Below are positions 1 to 46,341 of a stretch of DNA of 64,000 bases, in pieces. A program made the position numbers and the translations under genes. Source of the DNA: Mugil cephalus (taxonomy: Eukaryota; Chordata; Actinopteri; Mugiliformes; Mugilidae); the NCBI RefSeq assembly GCF_022458985.1, contig NC_061779.1, forward strand, positions 17,901,001-17,965,000, in the 5' to 3' direction. The notes under the pieces were generated by a model, which was not told the DNA's origin, searched no databases, and worked only from the letters and a program-made list of their open reading frames with translations. Each line of letters opens with the position of its first letter. Positions within the stretch are counted from its first letter, which is position 1.

Positions 1-2289
1 AAACGGCATTCGGCTGTTAGAAGGCCTTCATCTGGCGAGCCCGGGTCAAAGGTCAGTTTAAGAACAGCTTGTCCATAAGATACTGTTTCTTCATGGCTCA
101 TCAACTTCAGTCCACCTGAACCATACCTCTGTAAATTAAGCAAAAAAGCCAGTAAGATGAGTCTGTATTCACCTACATAAATTGAAGTAATTACCAAGGA
201 GGAATTGACATATAAACACCTCAGTGTTCCATTGCCTAAAATTCGTTGACTGTCTGCCACCTTGTGGCCAATCCCAGCAATTGCATACAGACGTCTGGTA
301 TTATTTACTCATGATCAGATGTAATGACAGTGTATTAAGTCATACATATTGTAAGTCACTATTTGTTCCCTTACCTTGACAGAGGATGAGGATGGCATCA
401 TGGTTTCATCATCTGAGTCATCATCTGAATCCCTGAGTTCATCAGCTTCCTGCCACTCCACGTTAGGACCTCGATGGAAGCGCAGGCGGGTTCCTGAATA
501 TCAACACAACAGTGTAACATGATGAATGAGCCGATGTGTGTTGATACTGCGGAGAAAGTGCTACAAAAGGAACACAATACTGCTGTTTGGACACCAGAGG
601 TGAGGACTGTTTAACAACATGCACATCCTGAGGCCATTGTGTTCACATGCAAGTGTCTAGGAAAAATCAGTATATAAATGTGCTGGCTGCAAAAACAAAC
701 AAACAAAAAAGTATTCTTCTGGGCAAACAGTGCGGGGTGACAAAACATTATTTATATGGATTAATTCTGGATCATATGACCCAGGGAGTGCATTGTATAG
801 TAAGCTGATTGTAGTTAGTTAGTTTTGTCTAGTGTTTTTGTTCATTTATTACCATATAGCTTATATATTATAATTACATAGGCCCCAAAGAAACACGTGG
901 ATTGTCCCTCTCAGAGAAATGTGTAGTAAAGTGATCCGTAATGACTTACAAATAAAAACAAAATACACTTACGTGTATATCAATTGAGCATATTACAAAA
1001 TATGCCTTAATTTATGTTTAAACATAACTAATTTAAAAATTTACAATGTAGTATTAAAGCATTAATGATGATTATATGATGTTTATACTAGACCATGTGC
1101 CTTTAAGCTGTGAGGTATATTTCTCAAGTAATTTCTTGAGTTAACTTTCACATGTGTCAGTAGACTGAGGTCCAACTGTGTGTGAATGAGTGTGTGTGCA
1201 CCTTTTAGGAAGCAATGCCAGGCAGTGGAGGGCCAGGAATGAGACCAGGCCATGTCTTCGTCATCAGAAAACGATGAGGACATTGAGAAAACCCCTGACT
1301 CTGATTCACTGCTGGCCTGTGGTAGATCACAAAAAAAATATTATAACAGACATCGGTAAAATAAACAGCTTCAGAAAGCTTGTTATACAGAATGTAGCAG
1401 TAGGTTGAAAGGGAAAGATTACCCTGACACGCCTACGCTCCCTCAGGTGGCCTCTGGACGGGTTGGGTGCGCTACTGGCTAAAGGGGGCCGGGCGTAGGA
1501 ATGTAAACTATTACTGTTGCCAAAAATGTGAACTGGAGATGATCTGAAAAAAAAAAATGACAACGTTATAAATATGAGTTGCTTATAAAGAAAACACAAT
1601 TGCAGTGGTGATACACTGACAGGCATTTATCATGAATGCATGTTATCAGTAATACTATGTATTCTGACCGCGAGATTTTAACATATACACCTCTTAATGC
1701 AATCATCTAATAAAAGATTATTTAGCCAGAATTAGAAAAACGTTGACCAAAATTCTGTTTATAATGACATAGGCATGCGACACAATGCCCGGGGATATTT
1801 CACAACCATGTTTCTAACTTGCAAGTCCTGCTGTGTGAAATAGGTGCGCTGGAGTGTGTGTTATAACATGTGTCAGTCTGCCTTTGTGTTTATGTAGCAT
1901 GTTAGACTTGGCTGATTTTCAAGTCACTGTGTATTTATGCAAACCTCTTATGTGGGGCATCCTTCAGTAGGGGACTCTGAGGACTGGTGGCAATGTTGGC
2001 CAATTCAGCAAGCCAGTTGGTGCTAGGGGAGCAGCTGAGCTCCTGGTGAGACACAGCTCCAACCTGAAATAACCCCGGAGACCTCTGGTCCTCCTCCACC
2101 TCCTGCAGCTCCGGCATGTCATCTGGGGAGAGATGACAGTCACAATGAATACATAGGAAAAAAGCTCAGTTAGCTTAAGTAAATGGCAAATTGAACAATT
2201 TTATCGAGCAATTTACCATAATCCATGTGGCACCCAGGTGAGGAGGGCAGGTCTTCGCTACACTTGAGTGGATCAAAAGACTCGTCCAT
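1..2289 (-). CDS. hbp1: HMG-box transcription factor 1 (HBP1), N-terminal half, cut by left edge
   Basis: Nuclear transcriptional repressor of cell-cycle genes. Six coding exons join in phase: 2289-2217, 2122-1945, 1543-1423, 1316-1202, 493-375 and 128 to beyond position 1, giving about 244 residues. Landmarks matching HBP1 are EDLPSSPG near the start, WLAELANIATSPQSPL, SSPVHI..LHSYARPP, SESESGVFSMSS and SWPSTAWHCFLKG. The last opens the AXH domain, which continues through GLKLMSHEETVSYG and LKLTFDPG at the window edge. The C-terminal HMG box lies outside. The start is taken at the ATG at 2289 because MDESFDPLKCSEDLPSSPG aligns with the MNDSLELL.. part of human HBP1; the human protein has about 27 residues more upstream, so a further 5' coding exon cannot be excluded. 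It lies directly downstream of prkar2b on the same strand, as in human. Confidence 0.93.
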
Positions 2290-16475: not shown

Positions 16476-21734
<5,259 letters not shown>

Positions 21735-24724: not shown

Positions 24725-27700
24725 ATGGCGCCCTTGTCGTTGTCTCTTCTGAGACAAACGGAGTGTCTACAGAGGGCGAATGTTTTCAGTAACCTCTTAC
24801 AGGGTTTACGCCACCGCCCGTGCAGGTCTCGCTTGTGGACACGGAATTTCAGTGCGGTAACCCGTGAAGTCGGTCAACTCCTGTCCCGCCAGCCGGGAGC
24901 CAAAAACTACGCAGCATCAGTTTGTAGCAGCTCCTATGCAGGTCAGGACATGACCGAGAGGCTGTGGTCTCTGTACAATGAGACAAAGAGGCAGACTGAA
25001 GGTATGGGCATTGTTTTCTTTAAAAAGAATAAAAAAAACTGCATTTATTCATCAAGATACAGCTCTGCGCTGAACACCAATTTATAACCTTGTTTTGAAT
25101 GGTTGTGACTAATGCACCAGCTATTTCTACAGCTGCACATTCCCAACCTTCCACACAATAAATCCAGACTACATGTACTAGCGGGCAAACAACATGTCAT
25201 ACCTGTGTGGTGCTGCTGCACTAGGGAGACAATTACAAAAATTATACATCCGAAGAAAGACGTGTATAAAATAAGATCAAAATTGATTAATAATAGCAAA
25301 ATATTCAGAATTACGGGTTTACAGAAAGATTAAAAACTTAGTGTGCATATGCAATGTACTAGAACTTATGTACTGTCTAATATACGTATGCATACTGGAT
25401 GTAATGTCTATGGTAAGACATTTTAACTTTGATTTGTTTTTTTAATCTGAAAATCAAAGCCAGCATCTTGAATGAGCTTGGTCGTCTACATATATTAACA
25501 GTATTTTGAGAAAACAAAATTTTAAAAATAAAGCAAGTATAAATACAAGTCAAAGCAATAACACAGTTGTAATCTTTAGAGGAGGCCCACTATGTGCAGC
25601 TTGTCCTGTCTATGTGTCAGAGAGGAGATCGATCTATTCTGTACGAGGTATTCTGTCTACTCCTGAATACATAAATTAAAATTCATGGCATTGTCCTAAA
25701 CCAGCAGCCTAATTCACAAAGTTTCTAGCATCAGTATTGCACGAGGACTTGTGATTTCTTAGTATAAGTAGTAGTTCATTGTTACTAGTAGTAATTGGAT
25801 TAATAGTGGCAGAAACGTATATTAGAAAATTGATCTCTTTCTGGCTCCTCTTATGTATTATTTTACTCACTTGTTCAAAGAACTGAGAGGACCTACATTC
25901 AGAAGTTTAACACGTATTCGTACTGGTGTAAACTGCACTATTTATACACCAAAAGCAACTTATCCACAAACTTCAACAAACTTGTTTTCTTCTCTCCTAA
26001 GATGCTTTTCTCTCACGGAAACATAATAACTCCTGAATTAAAGGAAACTGTGGAATAACCTCAGCTGTTTTTCTCCTCTCTTCTCGCGTTTGCTCCCAGT
26101 CATTTCCACCGACTCTGTGGACCCAGACACCATTTTTGCCAACAACGAGATGAGCCTGCGAGACATAGAGATCTACGGCTTTGACTATGACTACACCCTG
26201 GCATTCTACTCCAGCCACCTCCACACGCTCATCTTCAACATAGCACGGGACATCCTCATCGCTAACCACCGGGTACGTGTTAGCCTTCGTTGAGGCTGTT
26301 TTAAACGTGCATCAGGTGTAACGCTTTTTGACGTCACTGAGAATCTCAAACCGATTTTTGATTGTCTTCTTTGTTAGTATCCAGAGGATCTGCGAGCGTA
26401 TGAGTATATTCCAAATTTTGCCGTGCGGGGGCTTCACTATGACGTCCAGAAGGTGAGAGGAGCTTTTCTTGTCTAGCATTTTTTTTTTTATTACATATTT
26501 TACATAAGCTGCAGCGTGTGGATGATTTTTAATGATTTCCTTTAGGCACTGCTGATGAAGATAGATGCTTTCCACTACATCCAGTTGGGAACTGTATACA
26601 GGTACGTGTGCACTGTTACTCACCACATCACAATCAAACACTGTTGAGACGTATAAAACAATCTGAACATAGGTCGTTTCTTTGTGCTGTGTTATATATT
26701 TAAAGTTAAAGTGTATTTATAAGTTATTCTTATACTTGTTTAACATCACATGTATTAGTCTGCACTTGCTACGAATGAAGCTTTCTGTAACGTTTCATAT
26801 TTCTGATTCAGGGGTCTTCATCCAGTGCCTGACGAGGAAGTAATTGCCATGTATGAAGGCTCTCACGTACCTCTGGAGATCATGAGTGACTTCTACGGCA
26901 AGGTGACGATCACATATCACTCTCAACACTGGTGCTAGCTCTAAAAACACACATACAGGATATAATGATGACATCCCCTGTCCTGCAGAGTTCGCATGGC
27001 CACGCCATGAAACAGTTCATGGACATTTTCTCCCTGCCCGAGATGACCCTCCTGTCGTGTGTCAATGACTTCTTCATGCAGCACAACATCGACTACGAGC
27101 CGGTTCATCTCTACAAAGACGTTAAGGTGAAGCTTTATCATTCTGCCTTGTTTGATCGGTGTTTTGGGAAATCTCTCCCTCCTTTATCCCCGAGTGCGTC
27201 TCCCAGGGGCTGGTGTGTGTAAATACTTCAAATCTTTCCACATGTGGATGACTGTATTTACATGTTTCTGGTGTGCTGTGACACTCCAGCCGCTCGGTGC
27301 CATCTTTAGCTGTGAAAAGCAGTGTCTAATTTTAGTCGAGCTAGCTCGCCTCCAGCCATGTGCGTCTGTTCTCCGGTGGCGTCCCTGCTTCACAGGGAGA
27401 GGGGCGAGAAATCAGCACTGTGTTCTCCCTGTGAGGCCAGCTGTCACGCCGGTCCTCTGTGACGCTGTAGTGTTTTTGACAAATTGCTGTCTTTAAAAGG
27501 CCCAACTCTCTCTGTTCCACCAATGCCTCGTATCTTTTCAAGGACGTTCCCTTCACTTTTTTTTTTTTTAATTATTTAGCATTGATCCTGACGTTTTGAA
27601 ACTTTACTTCCCTTTGACTTTACTGTACATGAAATATTCTTTGTGTGCTGTGTTTGCCTTTTCATTCAATCACTCCTTCAAAAGCTCTCTCAGTGTGTCA

Positions 27701-30700
27701 CCACAGAGACTAAACTGTGGGTCCTGCTTTCTTCATATTTAATTTGTATTCAGGGAGGCACTTCCTTTGTGCTTCCAAGTCAACTGTTTATATACAGAGC
27801 AAAGTTGCTCTTGGAGATGAATGTTAACATTGTCTCAGTGGAGTCACGACTTCCTGTCTGAGGGCTGTTTATTTTTCCTCTTCACAGGAAGCTATTAGAG
27901 ATGTTCACGTCAAGGGCATTATGTACCGAGCTGTGGAGGCAGATATTGGTAATCTTCTTTGATTGATATTGCTTTGTTTGGGCTAACGAAGGAAATTACA
28001 CTATCTCGTCTGTGCTGTTGCCAGGACATAAAAACATAATTCAGGCATAATGAGGTTTTGCCATACAAATAAAAAGCAGCACCACCCACCCATACACCTT
28101 CTGTCTATTTATTTCTTTTTCCAGGGAAATATATCTGCTACGGTGAGCAGAGCCACGCGGTGCTGAAGAAGTTGTCGGAGCACGGGAAAAAAATGTTCCT
28201 CATTACCAATAGCCCTTTTGATTTTGTGTAAGTCTGAGCACCGCACGCATTTGCTGGCACGAATAATTAAAAAGATCAAGTACTGATGTACCAACGTTTA
28301 ACTGTCACCACTGTTTATTGGCCTAACTTTTATGGATAGGCGAACAGACATTGGACAGGCTGGTTGTTTTCCTGAAATGACCCGTGCATAAGCATATTCA
28401 ACCCCCAAAGCACTGAAATTATGTCCTGGATTTAATAGTTAGTTGGTGGAGTCATCACAGTGATAAGAAGGGGGAAGATACACATGTAAAATGTGCAAGT
28501 GCTGAAGTTTTTATTTTTGTAATGTTGCAAGTTCCTTAAATGTTATAGTCAGAGCCTGCAGGTTTCTGCAGACATTTTTGCAGACATTGAGTCCTACCCA
28601 GAAAGCAACAGCCAGTTCGATCACCGAGCTTCCGTATACACATAGCGAAGTCCTAAGAGGACATAAAGGCTGTCGCTGCTGTTGTGTAGCTCTGCCCTAT
28701 AAGTGTTATTATACCCCCATAAAGCTTCAAGAGGTTGCTGACAAAATAGAATAATATTCAAAGTCTCCCGCAGGGACCGAGGAATGAACTTCATTGTTGG
28801 AAAAGACTGGAGGGACCTGTTTGATGTCGTTATTGTTCAAGCTGACAAACCCAGTTTCTTCAATGACAGGAGAAAGTGAGTATGTTTGCGTTTGCAGCGT
28901 TTGGTATATTTGTGTAATGTCTTGTTTTTACCACTAGAGGTCACATGAGCACATGAGATGCCAGCAGTAGCTCTTGTATAATAATGTGCATCATGTGTCC
29001 TGTAAACCCCTTCGGGTCTTTCCAGTAATAAACACAGTTTCTCTGTCTATATTCTGTCCTAGACCTTTCAGGCGAGTAACAGACAAAGGTGCACTGCTGT
29101 GGGACAGAATTCACAAACTGGAAAAAGGACAGATCTACAAACAGGTGCAGCGAGAAGCCGTTATAGTGTTTGTAATGAATGACCTCTGGATACACTCCAT
29201 GAAACACATGGTTGATTTAGTTCCTAATTCACATTTTCCATCTCTAGGGAAACCTGTATGAGTTTCTCCGGCTGACCGGCTGGAGCGGATCTAAAGTGCT
29301 CTACTTCGGAGATCACATCTACAGCGACTTGGCAGTAAGCGGCATTCAAACGCATTTACACCACAGAAGTCCTTATAAGTACTCAAAGCACTGTCATATG
29401 AAAAAAGTATCTTATGAATGTGAGTAAAGAGCGGAACCCTGGTCTGACCATGCTCCATTTAAGACGCGAGTTGAAATAAATGTGTTCCCTCTGAACTCAA
29501 AGGGCAAATATGACTCCGTTAATCTTAATGACAGTCTAAGTCTCTCTGCTCTGTTAGAAGTTGCACATAGTAAGACGCTGAGCTAATGTCTGGTATGGTG
29601 TAATGCTAAATGACTGCTTTGAGAGGTGATTCTTTTGCTTTAAAGCCCAATTACTGAAGCACTGCTTTGGGTCCATCTTACAGACATTTTAATTGGTGTC
29701 TCTTGATATATCACACCTACCACATCTGCAGCAGTACTGCAGAGTGCCATGCACCTCACTTATACCTGTAACCCAGCAACTGGCCAGGTGCTGTCACTCT
29801 TCTGCAGTAAACAAACTAACAAGCATCAGGTTTTTTTTTTTTTTTACTGCTTCACAAAGACTTTATATCTGCATATATATGCACTTGATCAGGTGTAAAG
29901 GGTGATGAGAAAGAATTTACATCTTTGGCTTGATGCCTTGTCGATGGCAGACTGCCAGAAGTCAATTATGTTGTCCCGCTTATTCACAGAGATGGAATTG
30001 TGCGTTAGTGTTTCACACCAACTACAGCTCGCTGTCAGACTGTCTGGCTATAGAACGAGATCATTACTGCAAGTGGTCACAGAGCAGAAGCACCTCGGAG
30101 TTACTAATGAAATGATTCAATTACACAAGGTCCAAAACCTGTTCTCACTCCCATGGATGCTTTTTCAATTGTCTCGTTCCAGTTGATTTCGACAGAACAG
30201 ACACTCTTCTATATTAACTGTTGCTTTTGGTGCTGGTCATCTGACAGGTTTGTCTTCACTGAGGCTTTAGGTGCACACCTTTAACTAACAGCCATCCAAA
30301 CTCTTTTGTCTCATTTTTACGACATTCATTCTGTGCTAGGTTGTGGATGCTGTTAAATGTCACTGAGTGGGTAGCAGTCCTGTGATTATATAGGTATACT
30401 GTGGCCGTTAAATAAAAACTGTTGATGCGTGCATATGATGCATACGCCTACAATCTAGTAGAGGAACTTTCTAGAGTAAAAGCTACATCTGTGCTAATCA
30501 GTGTTTGTTCTTGATGTACATTTTTCTGAATTAGACTGTGATTCATCCTCTGAATGCTGGTTCCTTTTTCCAAAGCATTGCCAAAACCTATTAATTCACA
30601 GATCTGTAGTTTACATTTGTATCTCTTGTTTCTTTGGCATACTCCAGATTGCTACATAGCTCTGTCTCCATTGCTGCTTATGTTGGGCTGTTAAACCAGT

Positions 30701-31657
30701 CATTGTTAATATAAGATGCATCAATACCAGTGCAACCAGATATAAAACTGGTTAGCTTAGCGAGTTAGATTAGTTTTATGCATTTGTTTGGAGAGGGCTT
30801 GATTCTAACAGACGTTCATATAAAACAAAAAAGGCCTGCACCAATGTTTGTCTTCCTTTGTACTTAATTATTTATTTCCCGCGTATAGATCCGTGAATCA
30901 AAGCTCCAGCCAAATGGTTACATTCCTAAATCGCTGACAAATTGCACTGCACGCGCTCATTTGGGTTCGACATAAATCTTCTGATGTTTTGTCAAACAGG
31001 ATCTAACACTGAAACATGGCTGGAGGACGGGCGCCATCATCCCTGAGCTGAGGAAGGAGATCAAGATCATGAACACGCAGCAGTACGCTCACATGATGAT
31101 GTGGTTACAGGCGCTGACCGGACTCATCGAACAGATGCAGGTCAGGGGACTGTGTCAAGTGTTTGTGTTGCTGAGCTGCATTGTTTCCCTGGCATTTCAT
31201 GCGCTTAACTTTTAAATTGTGCTCACAAACAGGTTCACAGGGATCCAGAATCTCAAGCCGTAGTCGATGAGTGGATCAGAGAAAGAGAAGCCATGAGGTA
31301 ATAAAGAAGTTTCCTTTAGCAATTTGAGAATTTGGGATTTGTTCATCTTGTAGAAGTGATCTAACTTCAACTTCACCATTTGTGTTTACTCTCAGGCCGC
31401 AGACAAAGGACATCTTCAACGGTCAGTTCGGGAGTCTGTTCCGGACGTACCACAACCCCACCTACTTCTCACGCCGACTCTCGCGGTTCGCTGACATCTA
31501 CATGGCCTCCATCAGCTGCCTGCTCAACTACGACCTCAAGCACACATTCTTCCCTCGCCGCACTCCCCTGCAGCACGAGTCCCCCTTCTGGCCCGAGCAC
31601 AGTCCTGCCATCTTGAACGTCCCCTCTAAGACGCCTCAAGACCAGAGCAGAGTCTGA
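24725..31657 (+). CDS. nt5dc3: 5'-nucleotidase domain-containing protein 3
   Basis: HAD-superfamily protein of the cytosolic IMP/GMP 5'-nucleotidase type; the substrate is not established. Fourteen in-phase exons: 24725-25001, 26100-26272, 26378-26452, 26546-26601, 26812-26902, 26989-27126, 27888-27948, 28125-28227, 28774-28875, 29063-29144, 29248-29334, 31000-31140, 31233-31297 and 31396-31657; 570 aa against 548 in human. The N-terminal ~75 residues are Arg/Ser/Leu-rich with no acidic cluster, suggesting a mitochondrial presequence. [12 protein letters not shown] leads into the nucleotidase fold: motif I GFDYDYT (D121, D123), [11 protein letters not shown], and the acidic motif [17 protein letters not shown] lies near the C-terminus. 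NT5DC3 is preferred over NT5DC2 for [19 protein letters not shown] and [13 protein letters not shown]. It diverges from hsp90b1, its neighbour at human 12q23. Confidence 0.95.
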
Positions 31658-32979
31658 TTAGAAAATGAAGACTGATCAGCTTTTAACTTTTTTCATTCAT
31701 GTAGTTTTTCATGTTTTTAGAAGATGCATGCCACACGTTTAAATTATGTATAATTGGTAACAAACATGTAACATTTTGATGTTCAGTCTAGTGCTTTTTA
31801 AGCCAAAGCACGTGGAAGAGAGAACATATAGGTGCACTATCTAATCAACAGGGGGCAGCCATGTATCAAGTTTCTCATGTGTTTCTGTGGTATGAATTGA
31901 TTACAGAGATTATCTTTGCCTTTTTGTCCAAGGCATCTATTGGTGCAGTGGGAATTTACATTTACATTTACAGACTCTGTTGCCTTAATCTCTTGTTCAC
32001 GTTATATTGGGGGTTTTTTTTGTGTTAGACTGACATAATTTATGGTAATCAAGCTTTTTCAAATTTTGCCTGCAAATGTCATTATGTGCTGCACAGTGTG
32101 ACACGCAATGCACTTTGATGTTCTTTGTATTTAGTAGTTTTAGCTGTACAATACAGGCTGTATGTCTCATTTCAGCAGATGAGAAATGCTAATATTTCTC
32201 AGGAAAAAATAGAACGTAGTTGCTATCTTTAGTACGACCGTCGCTACTTGATCTGTGAAAGAGGCGGCATTCGATTTCTTGTTTTGTTTTGGGTTTTTTT
32301 TTTGTTTTGTTTTGTTGTGTTTTTGCAGATACTGGGTGGAATGTTTTCACACTTCCTGAAGCGATATCTTGTTGAGGATATATCTGAAACGTTGAGTAAG
32401 CCGAAGTTTTTTTTTTAATGCATTTGAAAAAGGGAAAATAACAGTGGCCACAACCAAGACCTCATAGTTTGTGTTTCTGTCGTTTTAAAAAAGAAAAAAT
32501 GCATATTTTTTATGTTTTATTTCACTATATTTATTAAACAAGAAACGGCCTGATCCTAGCGCAGTGCTCATGTCATTGATGTATGGCAGCGTGCTGTAGT
32601 ATGACAACTGTTGTAATTGGACTAAATCATAATGGGGAAAAATGTGTTGCTATACAACCAGCAAAAGGTTTCATAATTTGAAAATAATAATTTTGAGGAT
32701 TAACTGATCTCTTGTTAATAACCACTCAACTTTCCAATTATAATTATAGCAGTGGGTTTATTGTGGTTAATCCTCCCAAATCCTGTTACCAACCAATTTC
32801 CCATATTGCGTTTGGGGCTTTCTCTGTCAGACAGGTGCGTGATCTGAGATCTTGCGAAATAAGAACGGGGATCAGAAATGATCAGATCTGTGTTGCAGGC
32901 TGCTGAGCTGAGCAGAGTGTCTGCGGGTTCAGTCTGTGGCTTCACAGTTGCTTCCTCGAGGCTGGATCATTTGGGAACC
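31658..32979 (+). other. nt5dc3 3' UTR and short spacer before the opsin gene
   Basis: No coding exon. An ATTAAA poly(A) signal at 32533-32538 would give a 3' UTR of about 900 bases. T-rich runs occur at 32279-32330. The remaining ~430 bases upstream of the opsin ATG must hold its promoter; no clear TATA or named photoreceptor site was identified. Confidence 0.5.
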
Positions 32980-34592
32980 ATGGACAGCAACGGCAGCACG
33001 CTGTGGAGCTCCGGCTCCCCTCCTCAATCCGTCCACACCGAGCTGGCAACTGTAGCTCCCACCATCTTCCCTCGGGTGGGCTACAGCATACTTTCTTTCC
33101 TCATGTTCATCAACACAGTGTTGTCAGTTTTTAACAACGGCCTCGTCATAACCGTGATGCTGAGGAACCCGTCCCTCCTCCACCCCATGAACATTTTCAT
33201 CCTCAGCCTCGCCGTGTCTGACCTCATGATAGCTCTGTGCGGCTCCCTGGTCGTCACCATCACAAACTACCACGGCTCCTTCTTTATCGGCCACACCGCC
33301 TGCGTGTTTCAAGGATTTTCGGTCAATTATTTTGGTAAGTTTAGTTGTGAGTATGTGTCTTGTCTTTGTCTGGAGCCCTGTCATAGTCAGACACTGTAAA
33401 CAAAAATGACCATGAGCAGAGAGCCGACGTCCAACGTCTTTACTGAAAGCCCTTCAATAAACCAGTGAGTGTTTATTAATGCACATTCTTTCCAGCGGTG
33501 AATAGAGTTTACTCGCTAGTTGTACTAGAGATGGTCCCCATGACGGTTAAGCCATTTCTGTGCAGCTGGAAACTAAGAAAATATCCTTTAGTTAATATAT
33601 CTTTTTCCATCTCTTTCCTAGGTCTGGTGTCTCTCTGCACCCTCACTCTTCTTGCCTATGAGCGCTACAATGTGGTGTGCAAGCCAAAAGCTGGTTTGAA
33701 GCTGAGCATGCGGAGAAGCATCATCGGGCTGCTCTTCGTCTGGATCTTCTGCTTGTTCTGGGCCGTTACGCCGTTATTTGGCTGGAGCTCTTATGGGCCT
33801 GAGGGCGTCCAGACCTCTTGTTCCCTGGCTTGGGAAGAGAGATCATGGAGCAACTACAGCTACCTAATCCTCTACACGCTCCTCTGCTTCATTCTCCCCG
33901 TCGCAATCATCATCTACTGCTACTCCAAACTGCTGACGTCCATGGACAAGGTGGGCCCGTAATGGCTCGAAATGGCCTCATAATGCATATTTATTACCTT
34001 TTTACTGCGTCTGAGAATGTAAAATTCATACCTCTGTCCATATCTCGCTGTAGTCTCCCACATACGTGCTCAAACATTACGTTTTAATGTGGGTTATATT
34101 TGTTTTCCACCAGCTGAACAGGAGCGTGGAACTGCAAGGCGGGTCCTCCAGCCAGAAGGAGAATGGGCATGCCATCAGCATGGTCTTGGCCATGATTATC
34201 GCATTTTTTGTTTGCTGGCTGCCCTACACGGTATTGTCGGTGGTGGTAGTTGTGGATCCGGAGCTGTACATCCCACCATTGGTCGCCACCATGCCCATGT
34301 ATTTCGCAAAGACCAGCCCTATCTACAACCCCATCATCTACTTTCTTTCCAACAAGCAGGTGAGCGTCTACTTTTGAGATAGTTTTGAAGATTAGAAAGT
34401 ATTGCTCATCCGATTCCCGATTTTTATGTCCACCAGTTCCGTGACTGCGCGCTGGAGGCGTTGTCGTGCGGACACTACATTCCCCACGGGCCCACCAGTG
34501 TCAGCGTCCCCATGTGCTCCTTGAACAGGAGCGGCCGGCTGTCTTCCTTCGGCAGGAAAGTCAACACGCACAGCAAGGTGTTGCCTCTGTGA
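32980..34592 (+). CDS. parietopsin: Parietopsin-type non-visual opsin
   Basis: Retinal-binding GPCR; in other vertebrates parietopsin works in parietal-eye or pineal photoreceptors. Four exons: 32980-33334, 33622-33950, 34114-34359 and 34437-34592; 361 aa with seven hydrophobic segments. The retinal Schiff-base Lys is K294 (bovine 296) in FAKTSPIYNPIIY. The disulfide Cys are C108 and C185. ERY and NPIIY are intact. Bovine position 113 is Gln (Q111, in CVFQGF) while position 181 is Glu (E179, in GPEGVQ), the counterion pattern reported for parietopsin. The glycosylation sequon is NGS at 4-6. Introns fall at the ancestral opsin sites after residues 118, 228 and 310; the one near bovine 177 is missing. 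The MDSNGST start is chosen over an upstream in-frame ATG at 32878, whose extension is not opsin-like. Parapinopsin and VA opsin are the closest alternatives. Confidence 0.85.
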
Positions 34593-37500: not shown

Positions 37501-37756
37501 GATGAAAGTGATGTAACCGCCATTCAATTACAAGCCCTCTATTTTTTTTTTTTTTTTCCAGTTGTCTCTGCTGTGAATACACTGCAGCGTTTTTAATGAA
37601 TCTTAACAGCGAGGAGTCCCAGGTGACCCACTGGCGCTGAGGAGTGATAATGAAAAGGGCGGATACTTTGGCGTAACTTGTCCAAGCTCCAGCTTTGCCC
37701 ATTAATATCATTCATTCAGCGGAGACACGCGGTGACAAGAGACGCGGGTTTGATGT
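34593..37756 (+). other. Opsin 3' UTR and spacer before the orphan GPCR
   Basis: An AATAAA at 35175-35180 is the likely opsin poly(A) signal, giving a 3' UTR of about 600 bases. A second AATAAA lies near 36958. Poly-T/A runs occur at 34989-35003, 35316-35340, 36069-36088 and 37541-37558. A transposon remnant occupies 36281-36671. No exon was recognised. Confidence 0.5.
36281..36671. mobile_element. Non-autonomous DNA transposon remnant with terminal inverted repeats
   Basis: GGCCGCTTCATTAGGTACACT at the left (from about 36282) matches the reverse complement of AGTGTACCTAATGAAGTGGCC at the right (about 36650-36670) at all but one position. The 390-base interior is non-coding. This CACTT(T)ATTAGGTACAC terminus is familiar from fish genomes. 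I could not identify a clear target-site duplication. Confidence 0.75.
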
Positions 37757-39618
37757 ATGTTGGGTCAGTGCGGAGAGAATGAAGACGCCGAAGTAAACTC
37801 TTTGAAGCTGGAGATGGGAAGCGAGCCCTCGCCGGCACGGGAGTCTGGGAACAACACCGTTTGGAAGGAGTACATCGACATCACCTTTGTCGTGATTAAC
37901 AGTTTGATTCTGTTAATCACTGCTGCTGTGGGAATGGCAGCAAACATTTTTGTCATACTGGCAGTGTATCGCCAAAAATCGCTGCAAACCTCCAATAACG
38001 CTCTGGTGGTGAATCTGGCTGTTATAGACGTTCTGCGATGCGTAATCGACTGCCCCCTTCTGTTAACCATCAATGTGACCGTGTATCAAAGAGGACGAGG
38101 GGACGACTTGATCTGCGAGGCACAGTTGGCCTTCTTTGCTTTCAGCTGCTGTGTCCAGTTGTTAACGTTGGCATGCCTAAGCGCAGAGAGATACCAGGCC
38201 ATTGTGCAACCCTTCAAAGCTAGTCAACGAAAAAGACGGATTACCGTGCTGATCCCTGTCACATGGACCTCGGCTCTTGTGGTGGCTGTTTTTTGTCTGA
38301 TGTTTTTGAGGGACTCACCGGTGCACGTGAGATGCCTCGGACTACAGAAAGAAACCTTAGCTACCTATGACAGCTTTGGACTTTTCATGCTGTTCCCGCT
38401 GTGGGCGGTTTGCTTCAGTGTCATCATTGGATTCTATGCTGGCATATTTTCCCACGTGAGATCGCACAATTGTAAAATATTTGACAAAGGAACTTTTCCT
38501 GTTCCTAAAACTGACACAACAGAAGATAAGCAAAAGAAAGAACCAACCACGGTTTTGGAAAATGATAAATCGGAGGATAACCAAGCGTTGAGTGGAAGCG
38601 TTGCTCAGAAACCTCCTGAACCAGATTCATCTCTGAAGAATCTTGCGACTCCTGTGATAAACTCAGCTAAACCTCCACCGCGTGCCTCTGTCGATTCAGA
38701 GATTAACAAAGAAAAGAAAATCACAGTGGAGAAAAGTGACTTAAAAATGGAGCAACCGCACCCTTTTGGAGTGCAGACTGAGGAGAAACCTGTAAAACCA
38801 GATGGGTCCATCTTTGGTGCATCAAGTGGAGACGCAAATGTCAAGAGCTCAACCTCAAAGATTCAGACGGTGTTAAGCAATCCAAGCACAGACGAGCAGT
38901 CCAAAGAAAGGCCGACCGCCGACAAAGCAACCAAAGAAGTAGGACCCCACGATTACTCATCTACGCAGGCAGGGAATCCTGAATCAAATTCTGTATTACC
39001 GACTGAGCAGACGCAAGCTAACAACAGCAGCAGCAATGGAGGAGACACGCTGGCTGTTTCTACACCAGGTCAAGAGCCTTCATTAACTCCAGTCTCAAGC
39101 GATGCCCCAGAAGCTGAAGCTATAAACCAGCATGTGGCGGTAGAAGGTGCTGTTTGCATGATGCCTTCAAAAGCAAGCAGAGAGAGAGCGAGCAAAAAGA
39201 AAGAAAGCAAATTGGCCAAGCGTGCTGGCTACATAATCATTACTTTCCTTTTATTTTGGCTACCGCTGATCACAACTATCCTGCTGAACATTCCCATTAA
39301 CCAGAGGAAGAATGCACAGGTAGGACACAGCGCCAAGAATTAGAAAGATATCAAGGCTTTTAAAGAAATGCCCATAACCTTTTGTAGCATGCCTAGTGAC
39401 CGCTATTCTTTTGTCCACCTAAGCATTTCTAACGCTGTTTCAATTCTCAGTTATATTTTCAGATACTGATCATTGAGGATGTGGAGATCCTGTCGGTGTC
39501 TATTGCCTGCATCACATCGCTGAGTGACCCAATAATATATGCCGCGGTGAACCCTCAGTTTCGGACAGAGTTTAATCGTTTGAAAAACAGTCTTAAATCC
39601 ACATTCAAGAAGGAATGA
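37757..39618 (+). CDS. Unassigned class A (rhodopsin-like) GPCR with very long third cytoplasmic loop
   Basis: Two exons, 37757-39319 and 39463-39618, phase 0; 572 aa. Seven membrane spans are visible. TM1 has GMAANIFVILAVY. TM2 has LAVIDVL with the conserved Asp. C120 in TM3 and C193 in loop 2 can form the usual disulfide. ERY is at 144-146 and W170 lies in TM4. TM5 has FPLW, TM6 FLLFWLP, and TM7 SDPIIY, a DPxxY form of NPxxY. Loop 3 (about 233-488) is some 255 residues, rich in Lys, Glu, Ser, Thr and Pro, and low in hydrophobics. The tail is short (FRTEFNRLKNSLKS..). N-glycosylation sites are at NNT (32) and NVT (106). A second possible start is M20. The single intron lies in extracellular loop 3. 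I do not recognise the subfamily; it is not GPR22, GPR161 or GPR176 as I know them. It converges on kcnd2. Confidence 0.88.

Positions 39619-41567: not shown

Positions 41568-46341
<4,774 letters not shown>

What the first reader, a model, noticed from the sequence alone, without database searches (positions are those of the whole stretch)
32980..34592. Parietopsin with Gln at the classical counterion site and Glu at position 181
Translation shows Q111 (bovine 113) and E179 (bovine 181) with the retinal Lys at K294. Most vertebrate ciliary opsins use Glu113. A Gln113/Glu181 state has been reported for parietopsin and is thought to resemble the ancestral counterion. The gene looks intact in all four exons, so this fish probably keeps a working parietopsin although most fish lack a true parietal eye.
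Basis: partly seen in the sequence, partly recalled or inferred. Interest (0 to 1): 0.72.

Follow-up and report, generated by a model that had tools for sequence, protein, structure and literature searches.

The report
Ordinary fish parietopsin gene, intact
This looks like an intact gene for parietopsin, a green-light sensor known from the pineal organ on top of the brain; its unusual charge arrangement around the light-absorbing molecule is the normal, published state of this opsin family, so the gene itself is ordinary.

Summary
Window 32980-34592 (+) holds an uninterrupted four-exon ciliary opsin of 361 aa; aligned to bovine rhodopsin it has Gln at 113, Glu at 181 and Lys at 296. Q113/E181 is the published state of parietopsin. 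A survey of 451 vertebrate genomes found parietopsin in 112 species, carps, salmons and piranha among those named, and it is reported from the zebrafish pineal. So the state is expected.

One refinement: Q113/E181 alone does not prove parietopsin, because QB opsin/lepidopsin shares it. Exon number, protein length and gene neighbours favour parietopsin: the gene lies directly 3' of an NT5DC-family gene beside HSP90B1, whereas lepidopsin lies between TNNC1 and RPL29.

The only fresh lead is positional: parietopsin next to an NT5DC3-like gene here, and QB opsin in the NT5DC2/STAB1 region elsewhere, may be ohnologous sites. Interest is low.

The parts
32980..33334 (+). opsin exon 1 (N-terminus to TM3; carries Q111 = bovine Q113)
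33622..33950 (+). opsin exon 2 (TM3 to TM5; carries E179 = bovine E181); spans what are exons 2 and 3 of rhodopsin (rhodopsin exon lengths recalled)
34114..34359 (+). opsin exon 3 (TM6, TM7; carries K294 = bovine K296)
34437..34592 (+). opsin exon 4 (C-terminal tail; stop codon at 34590-34592)
24725..31657 (+). NT5DC-family gene (5'-nucleotidase domain; NT5DC3 by linkage), ends about 1.3 kb upstream of the opsin ATG; exon model partial, first exon assigned by eye
   Evidence: NT5DC3 rather than NT5DC2 inferred from the adjacent HSP90B1
16476..21130 (-). HSP90B1 (endoplasmin), ends in KDEL; divergent from the NT5DC gene; first exon(s) not traced; exons other than those queried read by eye
32697..32773 (.). 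two TAATCC hexamers (CRX/OTX-like, motif recalled), one on each strand, about 207-283 bp upstream of the ATG; weak evidence

Best explanation
The gene encodes parietopsin, a vertebrate non-visual ciliary opsin. Retinal binds K294 (bovine 296) as a protonated Schiff base; because the classical counterion site holds neutral Gln (bovine 113), Glu at bovine 181 serves as counterion, the arrangement published for parietopsin. [quoted passage not shown] Shown here: gene structure and residues. Inferred from relatives: counterion role, spectrum, bleaching, Go coupling, pineal expression.
For: Intact four-exon gene; Q113/E181/K296. Of the protein's 14 acidic residues, four align to transmembrane segments (D83, E134, and positions 246 and 278 at the two ends of TM6; segment limits recalled) and none of these is a known counterion site (recalled), which leaves E181 (no distances were measured). 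Intron sites fall at bovine 120 phase 1, 232 phase 0 and 312 phase 0; the rhodopsin intron near 176 (recalled) is missing. Four exons is the pattern of parietopsin, parapinopsin and lepidopsin; pinopsin and VA opsin have five. [quoted passage not shown] Lepidopsin/QB opsin is flanked by TNNC1 and RPL29 and has 376-385 residues in lepidosaurs, and in ray-finned fishes only pseudogenes were found; here the protein is 361 aa and the upstream neighbours are an NT5DC gene and HSP90B1; TNNC1 and RPL29 probes typed from recall found nothing in the window. Lamprey parietopsin: ~520 nm, Go, depolarising; zebrafish pineal: Go co-expressed with parietopsin; parietopsin-type bleaching; review on teleost pineal.
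Against: No tree and no direct comparison with a known parietopsin was possible; identity rests on exclusion and locus. I found no text that names the parietopsin neighbours, so the NT5DC/HSP90B1 locus speaks against QB opsin but does not by itself prove parietopsin, and an NT5DC gene is also part of the QB region. The lepidopsin length range is from lepidosaurs only. The six-frame Pfam scan of the neighbourhood failed its own control, as it did not report the opsin.
Confidence: 0.9

Rival explanations
1. The gene is an intact QB opsin (Q113-bistable opsin, lepidopsin), which would be the first intact one in a ray-finned fish: UV-sensitive and bistable rather than green-sensitive and bleaching.
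For: Same Q113/E181 pair and same four-exon plan; an NT5DC-family gene belongs to both neighbourhoods (NT5DC2 in the QB region; an NT5DC gene here).
Against: Lepidopsin is flanked by TNNC1 and RPL29 in all lepidosaurs analysed by its authors; neither was found in the window, with probes typed from recall, and the next genes here are others. HSP90B1 next door points to the STAB2-NT5DC3-HSP90B1 region, not the NT5DC2 region. Length 361 against 376-385 aa in lepidosaurs. In ray-finned fishes only pseudogenes were found.
Confidence: 0.07
2. The gene is a parapinopsin, VA opsin or pinopsin with a secondary E113Q change.
For: All are close relatives; parapinopsin has the same exon number.
Against: VA opsin and pinopsin have five exons; parapinopsins have E or D at 113 and in fishes sit near CACNA2D3, TKT and ERC2, which I did not search for in this window; pinopsin is said to be absent from teleosts (abstract of PMC6167363 as listed).
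Confidence: 0.02
3. The gene is parietopsin by descent but is a very recent pseudogene or is not expressed in this animal.
For: Parietopsin has been lost many times in vertebrates; expression cannot be tested here.
Against: All splice sites, the reading frame and the conserved opsin residues examined are intact.
Confidence: 0.05

Closest known systems
Parietopsin (OPNPT) of lizard, frog, zebrafish and lamprey
   Same: Q113, E181; four exons; present in several fish groups
   Different: none found, but no sequence of a known parietopsin could be compared here
QB opsin / lepidopsin (OPNLEP)
   Same: Q113, E181, four exons; an NT5DC gene in the region
Parapinopsin (PP1, PP2)
   Same: four exons, pineal opsin
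   Different: E or D at 113; published neighbours CACNA2D3, TKT, ERC2
Bovine rhodopsin
   Same: C110/C187, E181, K296; intron sites at 120, 232, 312 (rhodopsin's recalled)
   Different: E113 counterion, one more intron (recalled), 116 of 339 aligned residues identical

Membership tests
parietopsin | Gln at bovine 113 with Glu at 181 and Lys at 296 | tested here: met
   Q113 and E181 as features
parietopsin | four coding exons (five in pinopsin and VA opsin) | tested here: met
   feature
parietopsin | groups with known parietopsins in a tree | not testable with these tools
   no non-visual opsin sequence reached: the 60 PDB matches shown of 753 include visual, squid and spider opsins only; scans of viral and prokaryote contigs confirmed no relative; own-genome search did not complete
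parietopsin | green absorption (~520 nm), Go coupling, pineal expression | not testable with these tools
   published for relatives only
parietopsin | conserved gene neighbours of parietopsin | tested here: inconclusive
   neighbours here are an NT5DC gene, HSP90B1, PRKAR2B and a KCND gene; no text I saw names the neighbours elsewhere, and two full-text searches found no paper pairing parietopsin with hsp90b1 or opsin with nt5dc3
QB opsin / lepidopsin | Q113 and E181 | tested here: met
   feature
QB opsin / lepidopsin | flanked by TNNC1 and RPL29 | tested here: not met
   0 of 2 probes (typed from recall, unverified) hit the 64-kb window at E<=0.1; the bovine rhodopsin control found 3 of 4 opsin exons; the nearest genes seen are an NT5DC gene and a GPCR
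QB opsin / lepidopsin | length 376-385 aa (range given for lepidosaurs) | tested here: not met
   361 aa; range
parapinopsin | Glu or Asp at bovine 113 | tested here: not met
   Gln; feature
VA opsin / pinopsin | Glu113 and five exons | tested here: not met
   features

The most novel reading that the evidence does not exclude
Parietopsin and QB opsin, the two vertebrate non-visual opsins of this group with Q113/E181, sit at ohnologous sites made by the early whole-genome duplications: parietopsin just 3' of an NT5DC3-like gene (this window), QB opsin in the NT5DC2/STAB1 block. Their shared counterion state would then be inherited from one ancestral gene, against the published trees that join QB opsin with parapinopsin.
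Probability: 0.25. Interest if true: 0.5.

Novelty: already known. Interest (0 to 1): 0.15.

Why it matters
It confirms a routine retention of a pineal light sensor with the ancestral-type counterion. If the positional lead holds, it would help order the duplications among vertebrate non-visual opsins and explain why two of them share Q113/E181.

Tried and rejected
Own-genome search for other opsins: the tool was busy at all 8 tries, so no paralogue or species context. Relatives in viral contigs (1 pattern match) and prokaryote contigs (24 pattern matches): none confirmed by tblastn; neither collection is a place where fish genes are expected. Six-frame Pfam scan of 21-36 kb with stops read as X: reported only the 5'-nucleotidase family, in 2 of 6 frames, and missed the opsin itself, so its silence on other genes means little. 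Promoter idea: two TAATCC sites in the 300 bp before the ATG; 1.6% of all 300-bp stretches of the window have as many (TAATCY: 5.6%), suggestive only. A literature search on CRX/OTX and parietopsin gave nothing that I followed. tRNAs: none found. Considered and dropped: chance ORF; hidden Glu113 by a wrong exon 1; VA opsin, pinopsin, parapinopsin. I did not run a structure prediction.

Full report
What is there. The stretch 32980-34592 on the + strand is a complete four-exon opsin gene: 32980-33334, 33622-33950, 34114-34359, 34437-34592, with three GT-AG introns, 361 codons and a stop. Solved-structure and Pfam searches make it a rhodopsin-class receptor; among the 60 matches shown of 753, the closest are vertebrate visual opsins. 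On a MAFFT alignment with bovine rhodopsin (sequence checked against 1f88_A), Q111 is position 113, E179 is 181 and K294 is 296; the disulfide cysteines, ERY and NPxxY are kept. Of the 14 acidic residues, four align to transmembrane segments: D83 and E134, shared with rhodopsin, and residues at positions 246 and 278, at the two ends of TM6; two more align to 194 and 195 in the second extracellular loop (segment limits recalled). None is a known counterion site as far as I recall, so E181 is the plausible counterion; no distance was measured.

Which opsin. Two 2025 surveys supply the yardsticks. [quoted passage not shown] Parietopsin, parapinopsin and lepidopsin have four exons, pinopsin and VA opsin five (one section of PMC12043008; passages). 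The window gene has four exons, with introns at bovine 120, 232 and 312. That leaves parietopsin or QB opsin/lepidopsin, which I take to be the same gene (both flanked and described alike; a review cites them together). Lepidopsin is flanked by TNNC1 and RPL29 and is 376-385 residues long in lepidosaurs; the QB block also holds NT5DC2 and STAB1 (the figure itself was not visible to me); in ray-finned fishes only pseudogenes, in sterlet and gar, were found. Here the protein is 361 residues, and TNNC1 and RPL29 probes typed from recall found nothing, while a bovine rhodopsin control found 3 of 4 opsin exons.

Neighbourhood. From low to high coordinates: a type II-beta PKA regulatory subunit (- strand, about 6-12.4 kb; N-terminal part 64.9 bits to II-beta, at most 55.1 to II-alpha), HSP90B1 (- strand, 16.5-21.1 kb, ends KDEL), an NT5DC-family gene (+, 24.7-31.66 kb), the opsin, a two-exon amine-receptor-like GPCR (+, 37.75-39.6 kb) and part of a Kv4 (KCND) channel gene (-; the matched part is about 45.94-46.12 kb, KCND2 98.2 and KCND3 97.2 bits, so not told apart). 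STAB2, NT5DC3 and HSP90B1 are listed together in one cattle region (passage of PMC5271371) and in one mouse linkage block (passage of PMC6224167), so the NT5DC gene here is most likely NT5DC3. I could not test NT5DC2 against NT5DC3 by sequence: the 26 PDB matches are NT5C2 and a bacterial relative.

How it works. Retinal on K296, Gln at 113, Glu181 as counterion: this is the arrangement reported for parietopsin by Sakai et al. 2012 and Su et al. 2006, which I saw only as cited (the former is not held). Iguana parietopsin absorbs at 522 nm (passages of PMC3375259); lamprey parietopsin at about 520 nm with A1 retinal, with Go and a depolarising response (passages of PMC8444496; bleaching type, one section); in the zebrafish pineal parietopsin is co-expressed with Go and parapinopsin 1. 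Against an important role: a review reports that zebrafish lacking PP1 respond to neither UV nor visible light in these cells, PP1 alone being necessary and sufficient (passages of PMC13094114). For the animal of this window all of this is inference.

Is it surprising. No. The survey found 115 parietopsin genes in 112 species among 451 vertebrate genomes, 249 of them non-mammalian, with many secondary losses; the text I saw does not give the number of fishes, but names carps, salmons and two characiforms and cites zebrafish and fugu. The parietal eye is not a precondition, since the teleost pineal expresses it.

What might be new. Parietopsin here lies directly 3' of an NT5DC3-like gene, while the QB opsin block holds NT5DC2 and STAB1. 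That NT5DC2/STAB1 and NT5DC3/STAB2 are duplicate regions is recalled, not tested; STAB2 was not found or specifically sought in this window. Full-text searches found no held paper with both 'parietopsin' and 'hsp90b1', or both 'nt5dc3' and 'opsin'. Against it: published trees put QB opsin with parapinopsin, the authors derive those two by tandem duplication, and a 2025 model already places parietopsin within the visual-opsin chromosome set (PMC12486383, passages and the results section; its figure not visible to me), so the chromosome-level part may be in print. I give the ohnologue idea 0.25.

Limits. No tree, no named species, no other opsin of this genome, no expression data.

Noticed in passing
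46000-46113 (-): Rfam potassium-channel RNA editing signal (RF00485, 87.1 bits against a cut-off of 51) inside the Kv4-like coding exon; probably coding homology to the Kv1 site rather than proof of editing.
   Followed up: no
37754-39615 (+): Two-exon amine-receptor-like GPCR with a very long third intracellular loop; best solved match dopamine D2 receptor, only E=1.8e-16, so its family is unclear; the second exon was seen by eye.
   Followed up: partly
about 16928 (-): HSP90B1 appears, read by eye, to use a GC splice donor (CAG/GCAAGT) before its last two coding exons, which is needed to reach the KDEL end.
   Followed up: no
32697-32773: Two TAATCC CRX/OTX-like sites upstream of the opsin start codon; 1.6% of 300-bp stretches in the window hold as many.
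   Followed up: partly
42583-42662: Perfect (TTTCT)16 tandem repeat.
   Followed up: no
3-2165 (-): Exon-like reading frames that resemble HBP1 from memory; the two pieces tested gave no Pfam match.
   Followed up: partly
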